From positions 372,001 to 436,000 of the forward strand of contig JAGTJL010000023.1 in assembly GCA_020746875.1 (NCBI GenBank): 64,000 bases of DNA, in the 5' to 3' direction. The notes beneath the pieces were generated by a model. It saw nothing but the letters and a program-made list of their open reading frames with translations. It was not told where the DNA came from and made no database searches. Shown one piece after another: positions 3,075 through 42,240 of the stretch. Source of the DNA: Rhexocercosporidium sp. MPI-PUGE-AT-0058 (lineage: Eukaryota; Ascomycota; Leotiomycetes; Helotiales). A program made the position numbers and the translations under genes. How positions within the stretch are numbered: position 1 is the stretch's first letter; each line of letters begins with the position of its first letter.

Positions 3075-5039
3075 TCAGAGAAGGGAGAAGTTTGAAAGCC
3101 CCGCTTTCGACGATCTGCGTAGCTCCAGCTCCTCCTCAACCATGATTCCATCTACATAACATGGTCCGATTAGCTTGAGTTGGAGTGATGATGGTGGTCT
3201 GTTATTGTCCAATTGCCCAATACGTCGGAGTATGAATGGCACGCGGCCACCCATCAATACACATACAAAGTCTCCAACTTCCGTTGCATTCGGTGAAAGT
3301 GCCAACTTCCCATTGTCCAGTGCACAGAGTTTTCTTCCGATTGTCGCCTGCCTGAGCGAAGAAACAAACGGCAGCAGCTCTGCAGGCCCCTCATCTGATG
3401 GGGCAACCTCTTCATGGTCGTTCACCCCGTCTACAGAGTTTACCCATCTACTATACTCGTGCGTGTCCTTAATGGGTACGTCCCTCACATGCTTCATAGA
3501 CACATTGATAGTCTCCGAGAGAGAGACGACGCTGGTTGGAGAATTGTATGTCGGGTTAAAGAGTAGAGTGCGTGAATAGGCTGTCAAGGCATCCCAGTAC
3601 TCTAGCCTGGCTTTTTGGAGCGGATCAGGTTGATGTGTCCAGACTTGAGGATATATATCAAAGCGCGGTGACTGAAGTGAGAGCCGAGCTTCATTGACAT
3701 TTTTTGGCTCCCAAGCTCGCACGAAGTGTTGCCATCCGTCAGTCAAGTAATGGCCATACGGGATATCGTTGACAGTCCTAACAACCTCGGCGTACATAAA
3801 GCCGCTCAGGAGAAGATGATTCCTCAGCTTATCGAGGTGCTCAATCGTTATTTCGGAAACCTCGTTCCTTGCGTGACCGCCTCCGTTGTTAGAATCAGCA
3901 AGAGGCTGAGTTGCCATCGGATCAGAGGGATAGAAACTCTGGGTCCAATCTGGGCTCCAGCTCGGAAGGCCCTTAACATTGGACTCGCCTATCGGCCGAC
4001 ACATGAGGATGTCAAGCGTTCGTTGGGTTGAAATCCAAGCCTTCACCAAATCGATATAAACCTCTGGGACGGACTTCATGTAGTCAGGCAGGACTTGAAG
4101 ATCATCGCTGACTATCTTCAATATGGAGTAGATCTTGTCTCTCGGGTCGGAAGCTTGGCGATGGCCAAACTTGGGAAGCAGTACCTCAAACCCTCCTTGG
4201 TCAAGTTTTCCTGTCTTTGCAAATGCTAACTCATCAATTGTGCTGGATATCTGTCGCAGTCGATCGCTTGGGCTGGCATACCCTCCAACGCCTAAAAGAC
4301 TGTAAGCAACGTTGTGCCTATGGTAAAGCCCCGCTTCCGTAACATCTTTCGCTATTCTATGTTCGTCATCATGGACATGGAGGAGGCTGTGATAAAAGTC
4401 TTCCCAAGGCAAACACCGATAACCGACAACCAACTCCACAATTTTGGAATTGACAACCTCTTGTACTACCCAACTCCTATTCCACCAGCTCCGAGCGAAA
4501 AGGTTATCTAGAGCTTTGAATTCTATCGACATGGTGCTTAGGCGGTCGGCTAAGATGGCCGATGGTCGGCTCCAACTCTCAATGACATCTAAAGCAAGAT
4601 CACTGTCCTCCGACTGCTCTCCTAGCCAAACAATTACCCGCGCTGCCGAGCCATATATGCGAAACATGAGCTGGACCTGCGCACTCCGCTCTTCTAAATT
4701 CTGCTGATCAATGCAGATGGCGTCGACCCAAAGAATCCTCGGTTTGTGCTCATATCTTAGGTGCAAAAGTGCGGTGTAGAGATTCTCTGTAACAAAAACT
4801 GTGGCTCCGTTGATGTAGATGAGTTTGCGTGAGCTTGAGTCGCCCCAGGTATATGAAAGAGCTTCATACCCTTCCCCCTCCTCGACAAATCCGCCAAGGA
4901 ACCATTCGCCGTGCTCAAGGTCTTTAGTGTTAAGGCTACACTGGATGTGGTCGTCCCTAGCTCCCGCCTTCAAGGTGAGCAAGCGGATTTGCTCAGAGTC
5001 TCCAAACGGTATATAGACGTATGCCTGAGTTTGATTCAT
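3075..5039 (-). CDS. HET-domain (heterokaryon incompatibility) protein, 654 aa, intact
   Basis: Single uninterrupted frame from ATG (complement of 5037-5039) to a stop at 3075-3077. The HET domain (PF06985) spans about residues 58-205. Its three conserved blocks are visible: YEALSYTWGD (58-67), LWVDAICIDQ (103-112) followed by QVQLMFRIY and a VIVWLG strand (121-140), and WWNRSWVVQE (185-194). The C-terminal part ends in a module also seen in the HET gene at 30766 (GDFVCVLMGG, then a Y-D-G-I-M segment). Length fits the usual 550-800 aa of solo HET proteins. In characterised cases the domain triggers incompatibility cell death; which alleles this one would react to cannot be read from sequence. 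Codon composition is normal and there are no stops, so it escaped the RIP seen on both sides. Confidence 0.93.
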   Translation of the reverse strand: MNQTQAYVYIPFGDSEQIRLLTLKAGARDDHIQCSLNTKDLEHGEWFLGGFVEEGEGYEALSYTWGDSSSRKLIYINGATVFVTENLYTALLHLRYEHKPRILWVDAICIDQQNLEERSAQVQLMFRIYGSAARVIVWLGEQSEDSDLALDVIESWSRPSAILADRLSTMSIEFKALDNLFARSWWNRSWVVQEVVNSKIVELVVGYRCLPWEDFYHSLLHVHDDEHRIAKDVTEAGLYHRHNVAYSLLGVGGYASPSDRLRQISSTIDELAFAKTGKLDQGGFEVLLPKFGHRQASDPRDKIYSILKIVSDDLQVLPDYMKSVPEVYIDLVKAWISTQRTLDILMCRPIGESNVKGLPSWSPDWTQSFYPSDPMATQPLADSNNGGGHARNEVSEITIEHLDKLRNHLLLSGFMYAEVVRTVNDIPYGHYLTDGWQHFVRAWEPKNVNEARLSLQSPRFDIYPQVWTHQPDPLQKARLEYWDALTAYSRTLLFNPTYNSPTSVVSLSETINVSMKHVRDVPIKDTHEYSRWVNSVDGVNDHEEVAPSDEGPAELLPFVSSLRQATIGRKLCALDNGKLALSPNATEVGDFVCVLMGGRVPFILRRIGQLDNNRPPSSLQLKLIGPCYVDGIMVEEELELRRSSKAGLSNFSLL

Positions 5040-30765: not shown

Positions 30766-32594
30766 ATGGCTCAAATGGAGAGGTTAGTATACGTTTCTCA
30801 TACCAGCAATCACACTTCATCTTGTCCACCACCAGCTCATGCGAAGATTGCAGCTGCTACCAATACAAGTCGCTGCCTTCAGAAAATTGTATAAGACTCC
30901 TAGAACTTTACCCCGGGCAGGCAGACGACACTCTTGACTGCACTTTGCGTCAAGCCGAATTGGAAAATGCCCCAAAATACGAAGCAATATCATATGCGTG
31001 GGGTGATCCCACGAATAAGGTCGATGTGCTCTGTGACGGCAAGATCATTACAGCCACACAAAACCTCAAGGATGCCTTGGTCCGATTTAAGCTTAAAGAC
31101 AGATCACGATTTGTTTGGGCTGATGCGATATGCATCAACCAGAATGATGACGTGGAGAAGGGGTCACAAGTCAAGCTAATGAATAGGATATATGCAAATG
31201 CGACCAGAGTATGTGCCTGGCTAGGATGGGCAACCGTACAGATGCAACCCGCCTTTGAATTCATAGACGAAATAGAGTTCCATTCCAGCCCTACAAGTAC
31301 TCGTACGTCCCCATACCTTACAAGACCGAACCTTTCTCTAACATTATAAAACATTGTAGGTCAAGCTGAGCTCCCAGTACCTGCTTCGGAATGTTGGTCA
31401 GCACTGGCCATATTCTTCTCTGCAGCCTGGTTCAATAGGCTTTGGGTCGTTCAGGAAGTATATGGTCATGCTTGTACAGTCTTCTGCGGCGACTATGAGA
31501 TACCGTGGAAGAACATCGTCCTGGTTGCAAGGTTGCTTTTGAAACTTCGAATCAACGACCCAAGCGTATATTCTCTACCGGAAAATGCCATTTCGGCGTT
31601 ACAGATTGACTCCGCCGGCGATCGATCCGCGTCATCTGATATAATGGACACATTCCGCCACTTCCACTGCTCCGACCAGCGAGACAGAGTATACGCCCTG
31701 TTATCATTTCCACCTCTCTGTGGACTTCGGCCGTTGATCCAACCAGATTATAGCAAGACCGTTGTGCAGGTCTTCGAAGAAGTTGCAGTGAGAATTTTCC
31801 TGTCTTCCCAGAATCTCGGACTTTTATCCAGCGTTGAGCATGATTGTGCAATTGACGAAAACTGGCCATCCTGGGTTCCGAGATTGGATCGTCAACGGCA
31901 AACTCAGATTCTCCACAAGTACACCTCGGGGAGAGTACAATCATCCCTACCTGTCATACAGCACACCCCAAAGATCCTCATATCAAAAGGCGTTCGTATT
32001 TCCATGTTATCATGGTGCGGTGTGGTGATAGGGGGAGCTCCACATGGCAAATCCGGAATGAATCTTCTCAAGCAACCTCTCCAGGAATGGCTATCCAAAT
32101 ATCTTCCTATTATAGCACATCCAACCGACTCCCTCTTGCTTTGCATTGCCATGACGCTTACTGTTGGCCTAGACTTGCATTCGAATTGCCCTCCTCTCGA
32201 TTTGTCCCGGTTCCGTCTCGACTTTCTCGCCTATTTGGTGGGCATCCTACCATCTCTACATTTACCTCATACTGCACGACACGTGTTGGAAGTTTTGGCA
32301 GAACCAGGACTAGCAGGTAATTCATCAAATTACTATGCCGCTGCCGTCCGCGGATGCAAAAACAAGCGTATTTTCAGTACGCAGACCGGAGAATTTGGCA
32401 TAGGCCCCGGAGCCGCGCAGACTGGCGATCATATCGCCTTGTTATACGGCGGCAACGCTCCGTGCGTGCTTCGGCCAAAAGGGTTATATTACCAATTTGT
32501 CGGCGAATGCTATCTCCATCAGCATATGCACGGCGAAGCGATTGAAATGCTCGCTAGAGGATTGTTTGCTGTTGAGGAGTTTGAAATGAGATAG
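30766..32594 (+). CDS. HET-domain protein, three exons, 566 aa, intact
   Basis: Exons 30766-30782, 30854-31302 and 31360-32594. Intron 1 (71 bp, GTTAGT..TTGCAG) joins a 17-nt first exon so that MAQMES runs into CYQYKSLPSENCIRLLELYP, a normal HET N-terminus. Intron 2 (57 bp, GTACGT..CTAAC..TTGTAG) falls inside the HET domain. Coding length is 1701 nt with no stop before TAG at 32592. HET motifs: YEAISYAWGD (48-57), RFVWADAICINQ (91-102), QVKLMNRIY (111-119), VCAWLG (125-130) and WFNRLWVVQE (179-188). The C-terminal module (FGIGPGAAQTGDHIALLYGG, then GECYLHQHMHGE) is shared with the gene at 3075-5039. HET proteins act as incompatibility cell-death effectors. It lies 1.02 kb upstream of a HET-NLR pseudogene on the same strand. 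The tiny first exon is inferred; transcript data would settle it. Confidence 0.85.
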
Positions 32595-33614: not shown

Positions 33615-34341
33615 ATGCGTCTGCTATAGTCAGATGGCGATGATAACCCTAGCCTGACCGAGTTCTTTAAAGACAATATCCCCGAGTATATTATACTTTC
33701 GCACAGATGGGAAGCGGAGGAGGCGAAATTTAAGGATTTGCGGAATGGAACTGGTACGAACAAGGCTGGCTATGAAAAGATCCGGTTCTGCGGAGAATAG
33801 GCTAGGCGTGATGGCTTGAAATACTTCTGGGTAGACACATGCTGTATCGACAAATTAAGCAGCGCTGAGCTCTTAGAGGCTATCAACTCGATGTTTCGCT
33901 AGTACCACAAGTCTACTGTATGCTACGTCTATTTATTAAATGTGTTGGGAACTGCTGTCAACACTGGCGACCTGGCCTGGGAATCGGCATTTCGGAACAA
34001 CAAATGGTTCACTCGAGGCTGGACCTTATAAAAACTCCTTGCTCCAAGATCCGTTAAATTCTTCTCCCGGGAAGGCAACGGACTAGGTAATAAGAGAACT
34101 CTAGAGCAATAAATCCACGAGATTACGGGAATCCCTGCCACGGCTCTTCGAGAAAACCCTCTCTCCCAATTCGACGTCGATGAACGATTCTCGTGGGCCA
34201 AACGTCGACAGACCGCACGCGGAGAAGACAAGGCATATTCGCTTTTCGGCATTTTCGATGTCCAGATGCCACTTCTTTATGGCGAAGGAGAAGTCAAGGC
34301 GTTTCAGCGGCTCCGGGAGGCCATCGATAAACCGTTCAAGG

Positions 34342-34406
34342 GTAAGTCACATCCCAACGATTGATGCTTAACAGACTGTTAAGACCAACGCTAACTAGCA
34401 GTTCAG
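34342..34406 (+). other. Intron 1 of HET-NLR pseudogene
   Basis: GTAAGT donor, GCTAACT branch site, and acceptor TTCAG at 34406. The nearer CAG at 34401 would throw the following NACHT-proximal sequence (PEKDLLRHLPYANEALFNSY) out of frame, so 34406 is chosen. Confidence 0.75.
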
Positions 34407-35968
34407 GCCCTGAGAAAGACCTACTTCGTCACCTACCGTATGCTAATGAGGCGCTCTTTAACTCTTACAACCGCTAACAGGAATCCACCTGCCTCCCTAA
34501 GACACGCGTCGACCTTTTACAAGAGATATATGGCTGGTGTAATGGAATTAATAAGCCGTGCATCTTCTGGCTGAGTGGGTTGGCGGGCACGGGCAAGTCG
34601 ACGATCGCGCGCACGATTGCTCATAGATATTCTGAGCAAGGGCATCTTGGGGCCAGCTTCTTCTTTTCGAGGGGCGTTCAAGATGTGAGCCATACTAGCC
34701 GGTTCTTTACAAGTCTTGCCGTGCAGCTGTTAAAGCGTATACCATCTCTCTAGCATTATATCTCAGATGCTATCTCCAAGAACGAAGACATTGCGAGCCA
34801 CTCCCTTAGCGATCAGTGGCGCCAGCTTGTCCTCCACCCCCTATCGAAGCTAGACAGCTATCATGGCTAAAGCCGCTGCATTCTCATAATCGATGCTCTT
34901 GATGAGTGTGAGAACGAATACCACATTCGCACAATTCTGCAGCTTCTTGTTGAAGCTCGGTCGTTGAGGACAGTACGACTTCGAGTCTTTTTGACGAGCA
35001 GACCAGAAATCCCAGTTCGACACGGCATATGCGCTATTTCACAAGCCGAACACCAAGACTTCGTACTCCACAGCATACAGCCAACAATTATTAACCACGA
35101 CATCTCGCTCTTCCTTGAACACAATCTGGGGAGACTTAGTCAGGAATGGACTCTTGGGGCTGGGTGGCCAGGCGAGCAGGTTCTCCAACAGCTGGTATAA
35201 AAATCAAGTGGCTTGTTTATCTGGGCTGCTACTGCTTGTCGTTTTATTAACGACGGCCAAGAGTTTGCTGAAGAGAGGCTGAATGAGATTCTTGAGGGTA
35301 CTGGCTTTGAAGGCACCCCGGAGCACCATCTCGACCAAATATATCTCACCGTACTTCAAAGCTTTATACCTAACACTTTTAGACCAGCGGAGAACGTGCG
35401 GTTATGTGCGAGGCAGCGAAGGATTCTTGGAAGCATTGTTAACTTATTTTCCCCTCTTCCCGTTGCCTCGCTAGCAAAGGTAATTAGCATCTCTGGGACG
35501 CAGGTTACGCGGACTCTCGAAAGACTACAAGCTATCTTAGATGTTCCAAAGGATGTGGCTAGTTTACTCCGCCTCCACCACCCTTCATTTCGCGACTTCC
35601 TCCTTAATAAAGATCGATGTGGAGATTTCTAAGTAAATGAGAAGGAGGCACACCAACGATTAGCTACTAGCTGTATACAGCTGATGTCCCAGGCACTCAA
35701 GAAGGACATCTGCGGTATACATGCCCCTAGTAGTCAGGTCAGCCAAGTTGAGAGCGGTCGCCTACAGGAATACCTTTCCCACGAAGTTCAGTACGCATGC
35801 CTCTATTGGGTTCAGCATCTATAGAGGAGTGGCTCTCAGGCTTACGACGGTGATGAAGGCTACCGGTTTCTACAAGATCATCTACTGCACTAGCTTGAGG
35901 CGCTTGGGTGGATAGGCAAAATCTCAGAAGGGATTCAAGCGATCTTGTCCTTAAAGACTCACGCTTCG

Positions 35969-36017
35969 GTAATCTATTTAACTATTATATGTAAGAGTTT
36001 AATTAACTTATCCTTAG
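35969..36017 (+). other. Intron 2 of HET-NLR pseudogene
   Basis: 49 bp, GTAATC to CCTTAG, phase 0. Removing it links LSLKTHAS to the linker FIYDVRRFILYNRLAIKQAP and puts the WD40 array in the frame of the upstream exon. Confidence 0.75.
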
Positions 36018-36239
36018 GCTACTGAAAGTCCTAACTGACATGCGTTTATATATGACGTAAGGCGATTTATATTATACAATCGATTAGCGATTAAACAGGC
36101 GCCCCTGTAGTTATATTGCTTTGCTCTTGTCTTTGCGCCAGGAAATAGTATTGTTTAAAGGAAGTTCGAGGGATGTATCCCAGATTAGATTCAACTAAGA
36201 CCAAAAGTGCAAGCGCACTGGAACGCGGCGCTGCAGACG

Positions 36240-37682
36240 CTCGAGGGCCATACTGGCTCGGTCGCGTCAGTAGCCTTCTTACCCGACGGCAAGCAGGTCG
36301 TATTCGGGTCTTACGATCGGATGATGCGGCTCTAAGACGTTACTATAGGAGCAGCGCTGTAAATAATCGAGGGTCACACTAACTCGGTCACGTCAGTAGC
36401 CTTCTTACCCGATGACAACTAAGTCGTATTTGGATTTAAGGATCGGCTAGTGCGGCTCTAAGACGTTGTCACAAAAGCAGCGCTGTAAATGCTCGAGGGC
36501 CATATTAACTTAGTCACGTCAGTGGCCTTTTAATTTAATAGCAAGTAAGTCGTATTTAAGTCAGGGGATCGGACGGTGCGGCTCTAGGACACGGCTATAG
36601 GAGTAGCGCTGCAGACGCTCGAGGGCCATACTTATTAAGTTATATTAATGGCTTTTTCACTCGATGGCAAGCAAGTCGTGTCCGAATTAGGGGATCGAAC
36701 GGTGCGGCTTTAGGATACGGCCACGGGAGTAACGCTGCAGACGCTCGAGGGCTATACTAATTAAGTTATATTAATGGCCTTCTTATTTAATAATAAAGAA
36801 GTCGTATTAGGGTTTAATAATTAGACGGTGCGGCTTTAAGACACGGCTATAAAAGCAGCGTTATAAACGCGCGAGGGCTATATTAACTCGGTCGCGTTAA
36901 TAGCCTTTTTACTTAACGGTAAATAAGTCGTGTCGAGGTCTTATAATTAAACGATAAAGCTTTAAGACGTTACTATAAGAATAACGTTATAAACGCTTAA
37001 AGGCTATATTAACTCGGTTACGTTAATAGCCTTCTTATTCGACGACAGACAAGTCGTATCCGAATCTAAAAATCGGACGGTGCGGCTTTAAGACGTTATT
37101 ATAAAAGTAGCGCTATAAATACTCTACGGCTATATTAACTTAATTATATTAATAGCTTTTTTACTTAATAACAAGCAGGTCGTGTCGAGGTCTTACGATT
37201 AAATAGTGCGGCTTTAAAATACGGCTATAAAAGCAGCGCTGTAAACGCTCGAAGGCTATATTAACTCGGTTACGTTAATAGCTTTTTTACTCGACGGTAA
37301 GTAAATTATATTTAAGTCTAACGATTAAACGGTGCGGCTTTAAGATACAGCTATAGGAGTAGCGCTGTAGACGCTCGAAGGCCATATTAACTTAGTTACG
37401 TTAGTGGCTTTTTTACTTAATAATAAATAATTTGTATCGAAGTCTTATAATCGGACGGTGCGGCTCTAAAATACGGCTATAAAAATAGCGCTATAGACGC
37501 TCGAGGGCTATACTTATTAAATTATATTAATGGCCTTCTTACTTAATAATAAGCAAGTCGTGTCCGGATTAGGGGATCGAACGGTGCGGCTCTGGGACAG
37601 TGCCACGGGAGCAGCGCTGCAGACGCTCGAGGGCCATACTGACTGGGCTACATTAGTAGCCTTCTCACCCTACGGCAAGCTA
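36240..37682 (+). repeat. WD40 repeat array: eleven 126-bp units plus a partial twelfth
   Basis: The TCGAGGG core of each LEGHT motif falls at 36241, 36367, 36493, 36619, 36745, 36871, 36997, 37123, 37249, 37375, 37501 and 37627, exactly 126 bp apart with no indel. Each unit encodes 42 residues of the form LEGHTxSVxSVAF, SPDGKQVVSGS, then DRTVRLWD and TGAALQT. The first, fourth, fifth and last units keep most C/G. Units 6-11 carry many C to T and G to A changes and multiple stops, typically at the W of RLWD and Q of LQT. In HNWD receptors this array is the recognition surface. Confidence 0.95.
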
Positions 37683-37862
37683 TTACTAATCCTATAAGTA
37701 TTCGATCACTGGATACTCGAAGGCAATACGAATATTCTTTGGCTGCTTCCCGATTATCGGCAATCTCATTCAGCTACTTGGAACGGAAATCTTGTTATAG
37801 GGCATTTATCTGAGAGAATGTCATTCTTCTACTTCGAAAAAGGAGTAAATCTTGTTATATAA

Positions 37863-39779: not shown

Positions 39780-39781
39780 TA

Positions 39782-41632
39782 ACGTCTCACCCCTAGATTC
39801 CGCCCACCCTTAGATTCCGCCTACCTCGTTTAATTCTAGTACTTGATACTTAATACTTAATAATTTTATATTACGCTAACTTCTATTTAAGATATTATAG
39901 AATCTATTTCTCTTCTTGATTCTGATTCTAAAGATTTAATTTGGCGTTTTCTAGCTGCGATTTAAGCTTTCTTAATAGCACGTATTATAGCGAATTTGGA
40001 ATTTGGACTCGTTCGGATTTTTCGCTTTTTTTTTAGCCTTAACTATTTTAATCTCTCTTTTAATTCTTTAATCTTTATATTTGCTTTCTCTAATTCGTAA
40101 TCTCTTTTATCGATTCTTTTTATAACTTTCTTAAAAAGCAAACGTTACGTTAAAAGTTAATTATATGATTCGCTGGTTAAAATACGAATCTGTATATATA
40201 AATCTTTCTTAGCCTTTAAAATCTGAACTTTAATTAAAGTATTAGTTACTTCCGGAGGTAATATTAGCGTTTCTTAAAGCTTTAGAAGAGATAGATTTGC
40301 CGATTTATTATTATTTTCTAATAGTAAAAGGCTTATTAATAACTTAATTATAAATACCGGTTATAATCCTGCAGCTCTTTATTCCGCTTTAATATTAGAA
40401 GGTATAATACTTTCTTAACGTGCTTTTTAGTAGCAGATAAAGAAGTTACGCTTGCTAATTAAAGTAGAATCGATTAAAGAATTTAATTTTTATAGTTTTT
40501 TCCGGTAAGCACGCTTTAAGATAAAGAAAACCGTTAAATCCAGAGGTTGTAAGACGTGTAACGTATATACAAGTAAGAATAGAAAGTATATATTATATTT
40601 AAGGCATTTCTAAAGGAATTCCGTAATCTTATAATTTTTATAACTATTTAGAATAAGAAGTCTTACTGAATGATCTCGTGGTTTCGTTTAAGGGATAAAG
40701 ACTTTTTCTAGTTATTCAAGGGCTATTTAATCAGTTATTTACTTATTTTCAGTAATTATAAAATGCTATTAGTCGAATACGTCTAATTGAGACGGAAATT
40801 ATTATTGTTAGATCGATTTTCTCTTATAAATTATAGCTAATAGCGTAAAAGCTCTAATTGCAGAGATATATTTAATAATTATCGTTTAAGCACGTGAACC
40901 TGGCTATTTTCCTTGAATCTTGCGGCTCTTAGCGTTTCTTATAATATATTTATTAAGACCGTAGCTTTTTATAATATTAGTCTCGTTTATATTTTATCGT
41001 TAATAAGCTGGAATAGCCTTAATAGCCGGAATCTTTAATTTTTAGAATTACGGTTTAATAATTTCAGTATAAGCGGCGTTAATACGTACAGAATCGACGT
41101 AGATTTGCCTCTTGGTTTTTAGAACAGGATTACGTGCTAAAAATCGTATTATCTAGTATTTTCTTAGTAATAAGTGGTCTCCTTGAAGTGCTAAAAGCTT
41201 TTTTTTAAATACTTTGATCTGTATGTACGTAATTCTATAACTAAGAAACTCTTAAGTTAAAATCTAATTAGTTAATCGATTCTCTATTACCGTAGGTAGC
41301 TTTTGTAAGTGATTAAGAGCCTCTTTACGTAATTGAGTTATTATATTACGGTTACGAAGTGTAGACCTTGGAATACCTTATTTTAAGTATACTTTTCGCA
41401 AGGACTTATTATTTGCGACTTCTTCAAGCGCATATATGATATTATACTCAGTATATTCAGGCTTTATGATGAAAATAATGCGAATTCCAAATTTGAAGAG
41501 AATCGATTAAAGAATGGAAGAATAATTAATTATTCAAGTTAGTAGGTAGGAGTGGCGGTGAGTTAAGCGAGGGTGGGCGGAATCTAGGGGTGGGCGGAAT
41601 CTAGGGGTGGGCGGAATCTAGGGGTGAGACGT
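39782..41632 (-). mobile_element. pogo/Fot-type DNA transposon, copy A
   Basis: 1851 bp flanked by TA (39780-39781 and 41633-41634). Terminal inverted repeats begin ACGTCTCACCCCTAGATTCC. The right end holds three tandem copies of a 17-bp motif (GGTGGGCGGAATCTAGG) and the left end two. The interior is homologous throughout to 60985-62817, where the transposase is easier to read. Coding strand is minus. It is heavily RIPed, with no open transposase frame. Confidence 0.85.
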
Positions 41633-42240
41633 TATAGCTTAAGTAACGAATATCAGTAAAAAATGCGAGGATAAATCAGGATTTTATGTAATAAAAGAGC
41701 GACGTATTTAACGAGTTATTAAATATATAAACGAAAAGCGAAGATAAAAAACGTAGTAAAGATATTATTAATATAAATTATATATAATTTAATAGTTTTT
41801 ATAATATAAATAATATAAATAAAAAGATAATCCTAGGGGGGGGTAAGTGAAAGGTAAATATAAGGAAGATAAGGAAAAGGGAGAATTCGGCGGAAGAAGA
41901 GAGAAGAGGGATAAGTTAACAGATGATTTATTTAAGAATATATTAAATAAAACAGATAATTATCACTAAAGTGAAGGCTGACGCGATAAATTAGCGGATT
42001 AGGTATAAGAGCCAGAATATGCTTTTATAAGAATCATTAAGATTATAGACTTTAGGGATAATTCTTTACGATTATATAAAGAACTTAAAGGGAAGGAAAC
42101 GAGGGATAACGAAAGTGAGGACAAAGAAGTTGAGGGATAACGGAATTAAGAATAATAAGTTAGAGGACAATAGAATAGAGGACAATGGAATAAAGGATAA
42201 TAAAATAAAGGATAAGGACTTTTAGGAGGCGGGCGGGGCG
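41633..42240. other. AT-rich DNA with a purine-rich 12-bp repeat patch
   Basis: No gene. Between about 42060 and 42222 the plus strand is almost pure purine apart from T in a GAGGGATAAC/GAGGACAATGGAATA pattern, about ten degenerate units of roughly 12 bp. Confidence 0.55.

What the first reader, a model, noticed from the sequence alone, without database searches (positions are those of the whole stretch)
33615..37862. Complete HET-NACHT-WD40 NLR fossil readable from start to stop, broken only by transition-type stops
HET effector, NACHT with intact P-loop and Walker B, linker, twelve WD40 units and C-terminal cap lie in one gene with two short introns and no net indel in about 4.1 kb of coding sequence. 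At least 13 stops upstream of the WD part, and more within it, are each one or two C:G to T:A steps from Gln, Trp or Arg codons. That matches the HET-E/HET-D/HNWD receptors that control non-self recognition in Podospora. An inactive but structurally perfect allele suggests recent loss by RIP, and a functional allele may exist in other strains.
Basis: partly seen in the sequence, partly recalled or inferred. Interest (0 to 1): 0.88.

Follow-up and report, generated by a model that had tools for sequence, protein, structure and literature searches.

The report
Dead fungal immune receptor, sensor hypermutated
This is a broken copy of a fungal receptor gene of the self/non-self type in which a repeat-seeking mutation process (RIP) hit the repeated sensor part about four times harder than the rest, which suggests that such sensors attract their own mutation, an idea raised in 2007 and left open.

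Summary
Confirmed: window 33615-37862 is a HET-NACHT-WD40 (HNWD-type) NLR pseudogene. All three domains match Pfam; with two inferred introns the frame holds, with 48 in-frame stops (47 TAG/TAA, 1 TGA). The genome looks helotialean (best homologue 72% identical, Cadophora sp.) and holds related genes, at least three stop-free in all three domains.

Against paralogues, WD units 2-11 carry 196 C>T/G>A changes at 480 conserved C:G cells, 0 reverse transitions, 6 transversions, CpA preferred. Edge units 1 (6/48) and 12 (3/48) are spared. The compared parts of HET and NACHT show 68/653, within paralogue range. Thirteen other arrays fetched show 0.01-0.10. Podospora NWDp1/NWDp2 show the reverse: NACHT RIPed, WD spared.

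Best explanation: array homology made the near-identical WD units the RIP substrate, in a gene no longer protected by selection. This is a natural case of what Paoletti et al. 2007 said was needed to decide whether WD arrays trigger RIP. Whether intact alleles exist in other strains could not be tested.

The parts
33615..34341 (+). HET exon (5 in-frame stops)
   Evidence: PF06985 44.1 bits; one unbroken tblastn match
34342..34406 (+). inferred intron 1 (65 nt)
   Evidence: GT..AG and frame bookkeeping; not tested by transcript or alignment
34407..35968 (+). NACHT exon (7 in-frame stops); P-loop and Walker B readable
   Evidence: PF24883 113.6 bits, PF05729 41.3 bits; one unbroken tblastn match; motif names recalled, letters
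35246..35566 (+). about 107-residue patch of the NACHT C-terminal part of a minority sequence type; left out of the mutation counts
   Evidence: 39-41% identical to five in-genome paralogues, 74-83% to 10 of 120 homologues
35969..36017 (+). inferred intron 2 (49 nt)
   Evidence: GT/AG borders in an alignment with 7 paralogues
36018..36206 (+). linker before the WD array (4 in-frame stops)
   Evidence: RIP-type changes 7/37 over 36041-36206
36207..36332 (+). WD unit 1, spared (no stops; 6/48 RIP-type)
36333..37592 (+). WD units 2-11, hypermutated core (31 stops; 196/480 RIP-type, 0 reverse, 6 transversions)
37593..37718 (+). WD unit 12, spared (3/48 RIP-type; 1 stop in its diverged last part)
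37719..37862 (+). C-terminal cap and terminal stop; no RIP sign (composite index -1.38 over 37719-37844)
   Evidence: aligned with the cap of paralogue L037
37863..39779 (.). AT-rich flank with RIP-like composition
39780..41634 (.). high-copy repeat with 46-bp terminal inverted repeats

Best explanation
The locus is a dead member of a HET-NACHT-WD40 receptor family in a helotialean-like fungus. Its ancestor presumably worked like HET-E/HET-D: WD repeats sense a partner, NACHT switches, HET kills the cell (inferred from family knowledge, not shown). The WD sensor is a tandem array of 126-nt units. In five arrays without stops the units average 0.84-0.93 DNA identity, above the roughly 80% and 400 bp quoted for RIP of linked repeats, while HET and NACHT find only shorter or less similar partners in this genome. 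The array was therefore the part of the gene that RIP could recognise, by its own units or by arrays elsewhere. RIP changed C:G to T:A, preferring CpA, on both strands across units 2-11 and fell off at the edge units. Shown: location, spectrum, context, and that it stands out among the arrays fetched. Inferred: that array homology was the trigger, and that lack of selection let the damage stay.
For: Units 2-11: 196 of 202 changes at conserved columns are C>T (111) or G>A (85); no reverse transition; 6 transversions. CpA 34/50 against 65/200 in other known contexts. RIP-type fraction by unit 1 to 12: 0.12, 0.31, 0.38, 0.25, 0.35, 0.48, 0.44, 0.54, 0.48, 0.42, 0.44, 0.06. HET 17/205, NACHT front 34/284, NACHT back 17/164, with 49 reverse transitions and 47 transversions in all. 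Unit 12 and cap are spared between array and AT-rich flank. Of 17 other loci scanned, 13 have 3 or more units at 0.01-0.10. Inter-unit identity is now 0.71 (0.63-0.84) against 0.84-0.93 in five arrays without stops.
Against: HET and NACHT carry 12 stops, so something also hit them, with no clear excess of RIP-type change (NACHT front 0.12 against 0.075 and 0.077 in stop-free L039 and L038, so a light excess is possible). The 13 other arrays, several in loci with stops, are not hypermutated, so repetition alone is not enough. A single unit in L048 scored 0.19. Units share columns, so the tests overstate significance. Five of the 13 arrays built the reference unit (the other eight give 0.02-0.10), and L059 and L060 were fetched only in part. 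Whether the array matched itself or arrays at other loci cannot be told. The trigger and timing are not observed. RIP is not shown by experiment in this unnamed species; DNA methyltransferase matches exist but RID was not identified.
Confidence: 0.7

Rival explanations
1. Spill-over: RIP of the AT-rich transposon flank downstream leaked into the end of the gene.
For: The flank from 37863 on is AT-rich and RIP-like in composition; a high-copy repeat starts near 39780.
Against: Unit 12 (3/48) and the cap (index -1.38), which lie between flank and core, are spared, and the highest fraction is in unit 8.
Confidence: 0.06
2. Whole-gene duplication RIP: a recent duplicate of the entire gene was recognised and both copies were RIPed, as proposed for P. 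anserina NWDp1/NWDp2.
For: It is the known route in the family (PMC1805685, sections 6 and 13). The 12 HET/NACHT stops are all TAA/TAG.
Against: HET+NACHT 68/653 against array 196/480. No near-identical partner in the assembly: best full-length match 81% for HET and 82% over 402 nt for NACHT.
Confidence: 0.1
3. Mosaic: the whole gene was RIPed, then HET and NACHT were overwritten by gene conversion from an intact paralogue; or a RIPed array was moved in from another locus.
For: WD units are exchanged between loci in P. anserina (PMC1805685, PMC12222747, passages). Part of this NACHT is of another sequence type than the paralogues.
Against: No paralogue in the assembly is close enough to be a recent donor of HET/NACHT, and the best long array match is only 68%.
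Confidence: 0.1
4. Ordinary decay after loss of selection, or CpG deamination, with no repeat-directed process.
For: C>T is a common mutation in general (recalled).
Against: 196 RIP-type changes beside 0 reverse transitions and 6 transversions; CpA (34/50) rather than CpG (13/40) is hit most; confined to units 2-11; no frameshift in HET or NACHT.
Confidence: 0.03
5. The gene is still used, by read-through or stop-removing RNA editing.
For: The frame is conserved; A-to-I editing of UAG is known in some fungi (recalled).
Against: 48 in-frame stops, the first at codon 5; 26 of 31 array stops are TAA, which would need two edits; 13 of 31 lie where paralogues mostly have Gln.
Confidence: 0.01

Closest known systems
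P. anserina het-E, het-D, het-R and hnwd1/hnwd3 (HNWD family)
   Same: Same domain order and tandem WD units; functional alleles usually have 11 highly conserved repeats plus diverged C-terminal ones (PMC12222747, abstract passage); here 11 units pass the similarity cut, followed by a partly diverged twelfth and a cap.
   Different: Other class of fungi (inferred), dead, partner unknown, no incompatibility test.
P. anserina pseudogenes NWDp1 (nwd6) and NWDp2
   Same: NWD-type genes inactivated by RIP; nwdp-1 lacks stops in some strains (PMC12222747, passage).
   Different: There NACHT is RIPed (CA/TA 0.1 and 0.03) and WD spared (3.28 and 3.24) (PMC1805685, Table 1). Here NACHT is 1.16 and WD 0.28.
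P. anserina NWDp3
   Same: Its WD ratios (CA/TA 0.74, TG/TA 0.42) are lower than its NACHT ratios (1.15, 1.08), the nearest precedent seen for the direction found here (same table).
   Different: Mild, and that section does not name it as RIP-inactivated; the gene was put down to an inversion.
Helotialean HNWD proteins, best Cadophora sp. DSE1049 P0001
   Same: HET and NACHT homologous over the whole query region, 72% identical.
   Different: A protein of another species, not an allele of this locus.

Membership tests
HNWD (HET-NACHT-WD40) NLRs | N-terminal HET domain | tested here: met
   PF06985 44.1 bits, cut-off 22.5
HNWD (HET-NACHT-WD40) NLRs | central NACHT with P-loop and Walker B | tested here: met
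   PF24883 113.6 and PF05729 41.3 bits; motifs readable (motif names recalled)
HNWD (HET-NACHT-WD40) NLRs | C-terminal array of near-identical WD40 units | tested here: met
   12 units of 126 nt in register; near-identity is lost now (mean 0.71 in units 2-11) but kept in paralogues
HNWD (HET-NACHT-WD40) NLRs | open reading frame | tested here: not met
   48 in-frame stops: a pseudogene of the family, not an active member
vegetative incompatibility (het) gene | polymorphic alleles and a barrage reaction | not testable with these tools
   no strains or crosses available
RIP-inactivated sequence | C:G>T:A excess with CpA preference (WD array) | tested here: met
   units 2-11: 196 of 202 changes; CpA 34/50 against 65/200
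RIP-inactivated sequence | same excess in HET and NACHT | tested here: inconclusive
   68/653, within paralogue range; all 12 stops TAA/TAG
RIP-inactivated sequence | RID-dependent, premeiotic | not testable with these tools
   PF00145 matches found; RID not identified

The most novel reading that the evidence does not exclude
Tandem WD arrays of fungal NLRs are themselves RIP targets. In living receptors selection and unit exchange hide it; once the gene is dead the array hypermutates in place, core units first, until the units fall below the recognition threshold. If so, the sensor carries its own locus-specific hypermutation, as Paoletti et al. 2007 proposed but could not show.
Probability: 0.5. 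Interest if true: 0.75.

Novelty: new variant of a known kind. Interest (0 to 1): 0.5.

Why it matters
PMC1805685 (Paoletti et al. [quoted passage not shown] A dead gene with damage sharply limited to the array is such a case in nature. It gives a pattern (core units hit, edge units and unique domains spared) that can be sought in other dead NLRs and in laboratory crosses.

Tried and rejected
Rejected: spill-over from the transposon flank (cap and unit 12 spared); ordinary decay; the argument that stops near Gln/Trp/Arg codons prove RIP (true of any TAA or TAG). Left weak: a RIP excess in HET/NACHT and a gradient towards the array (linker 7/37, but paralogue L040 also 7/39). Composite RIP indices are raised in the WD arrays of L037 and L040, but their column-wise fractions are only 0.08 and 0.10, so the index alone misleads on repeats. 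Third-position enrichment of non-RIP changes holds for NACHT but not for HET (4/3/4). No near-identical orthologue was among the 120 listed of 5871 matching proteins, so no allele comparison. WD arrays matched at other places (for example on C12, C4 and C10) were not all fetched. Literature: searches and 57 of the held library showed no report of array-centred RIP in an NLR pseudogene in what I saw. PMC1805685, PMC2873952, PMC4986451, PMC12222747, PMC12258605 and PMC12543289 were seen as passages (of PMC1805685 also sections 6 and 13 in full), PMC12881547 as one passage of its reference list; all others as search listings.

Full report
The window lies at G000:C16:372001-436000 of a 62.7-Mb, 60-contig genome with at least 150 HET and 158 PF24883 six-frame matches (matches, not genes; lower bounds; PF24883 also rang in 9 of 14 control genomes). 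The best-scoring named proteins are mostly Helotiales (Cadophora, Leptodontidium, Hymenoscyphus, Phialocephala and others), the best 72% identical over the HET-NACHT part.

The gene. HET exon 33615-34341, intron 34342-34406, NACHT exon 34407-35968, intron 35969-36017, WD exon 36018-37862. Pfam models match each part with stops read as X. Intron 2 has GT/AG borders in all 7 paralogues aligned; intron 1 rests on GT/AG and frame only. HET and NACHT each give one unbroken tblastn match, so no frameshift. There are 48 in-frame stops: 5, 7 and 36 in the three exons; 47 are TAG/TAA, and one is a TGA at 36036 that my first count missed because it began at 36042. That each stop is one or two C:G>T:A steps from Gln, Trp or Arg holds for any TAA or TAG. 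Against codons of any aligned paralogue, 10 of 12 HET/NACHT stops and 26 of 31 array stops are reachable by such steps only; the majority residue there is Gln, Trp or Arg in 10 of 12 and 23 of 31.

The family. Besides the gene itself, DNA searches found HET-exon matches at 66-88% (the 88% over 137 nt only) and NACHT-exon matches at 70-82% in the same genome. Loci L041, L045 and L047 show no stop in HET, NACHT or the WD units found (the L047 NACHT match is only 25% identical). L036, L037, L040, L042, L044 and L046 carry stops in HET or NACHT matches, and L037, L040, L055, L056 and L060 in WD units, so dead or dying members are common here.

Where the damage is. I compared each unit with columns at least 85% constant in five arrays without stops (L041, L045, L038, L039, L047). 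In window units 2-11, 196 of 480 conserved C:G cells are C>T or G>A (111 and 85), no reverse transition is seen at 250 A:T cells, and there are 6 transversions. By unit the fraction is 0.12 in unit 1, 0.25-0.54 in units 2-11 and 0.06 in unit 12, whose last part is diverged and says little. In blocks of 42 nt (80% columns) the change sets in at 36333 and falls after 37550, unevenly in between (0.11-0.78). CpA is hit in 34 of 50 cells against 65 of 200 in other known contexts; CpG in 13 of 40. For HET, NACHT front and NACHT back, counted against paralogues, RIP-type changes are 17/205, 34/284 and 17/164, with 49 reverse transitions and 47 transversions in all. Paralogue values there run from 0.03 to 0.14; the stop-free L038 and L039 have 0.077 and 0.075 in the NACHT front against 0.12 here, so a light excess is possible. 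A 320-nt patch of NACHT too diverged to align as DNA (about 35248-35567, no stops) was left out. The linker gives 7/37 against 0-7 of 35-39 in eight paralogues. The composite RIP index is -0.27 in HET, -0.20 in NACHT, +0.85 in the WD exon, up to +1.91 in unit 9, and -1.38 in the cap. Fisher tests give 5.8e-33 for array against HET+NACHT and 4e-10 against units 1 and 12, overstated because units share columns.

Outlier. I scanned 17 other loci with the reference unit: 13 had 3 or more units, with RIP-type fractions 0.01-0.10; L036 and L048 had one unit each (0.04, 0.19); L042 and L046 had none. Five of the 13 made the reference; the other eight give 0.02-0.10. L059 and L060 were fetched in part, and further arrays matched were not fetched. 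The window array gives 202/528 (0.38) over its 11 scored units.

Reading. In the five arrays without stops the units average 0.84-0.93 identity, above the 80% and 400 bp that PMC1805685 (section 6) quotes for RIP of linked copies. HET and NACHT find no partner beyond about 81% over 750 nt or 82% over 402 nt, short of the 1 kb quoted there for unlinked copies. Those thresholds predict damage in the array and little outside, as seen. Units now average 0.71. Other changes in units 2-11 are 6 of 730 cells (0.8%), in the range of eight arrays without stops (0.6-5.3%, reverse transitions and transversions), so there is little sign of long decay after the burst. Non-RIP changes in NACHT lean to third codon positions (front 15/15/40; back 1/5/9 after allowing for the frame offset), which suggests earlier constraint; in HET (4/3/4) they do not. 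No absolute date follows. Spill-over from the flank fails because unit 12 and the cap are spared.

What is known. P. anserina NWDp1 and NWDp2 are RIP-inactivated relatives, but there NACHT is RIPed and WD spared, explained by exchange of units with live genes. The same paper holds that WD arrays should a priori trigger RIP, finds only suggestive counts, and asks for measurement without selection (PMC1805685, sections 6 and 13). PMC4986451 repeats the suggestion (passage). The main text held of PMC12222747 does not contain the word RIP and reports nwdp-1 without stops in some strains. NWDp3 in Table 1 has mildly lower WD ratios, the nearest precedent seen. The present locus is the mirror image of NWDp1/2.

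Limits. One genome, one allele, no transcripts, no crosses. The order of events (array first, or HET/NACHT stops first) is open, and so is whether the array matched itself or arrays elsewhere. Twelve HET/NACHT stops remain without a clear RIP excess. Why this array and not the thirteen others is unexplained; its AT-rich setting or an earlier loss of function may matter.

Noticed in passing
35246-35566: About 107 residues of the NACHT C-terminal part come in two sequence types. In-genome paralogues are 39-41% identical to the window there, but 62-75% on either side. Of 120 homologues, 12 score for the window's type by more than 20 bits (10 of them 74-83% identical; named ones are Helotiales of several genera), 82 for the type of paralogue L039, 26 lie between. 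It looks like an old swapped or balanced module.
   Followed up: partly
39780-41634: High-copy repeat with 46-bp terminal inverted repeats (44 of 46 identical). 54 matches, self included, from 40 scored of 237 candidates, the long ones at 73-90%; another copy lies about 1.3 kb outside the window.
   Followed up: partly
30766-32594: HET gene just upstream, apparently with one short intron (inferred) and no sign of RIP (index -0.75).
   Followed up: no
3075-5039: Uninterrupted 654-aa HET-domain reading frame on the minus strand.
   Followed up: no
L037, L040, L055, L056, L060: Further HNWD-like loci with stops in WD units but only 0.04-0.10 RIP-type change, possibly other stages or routes of loss.
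   Followed up: partly
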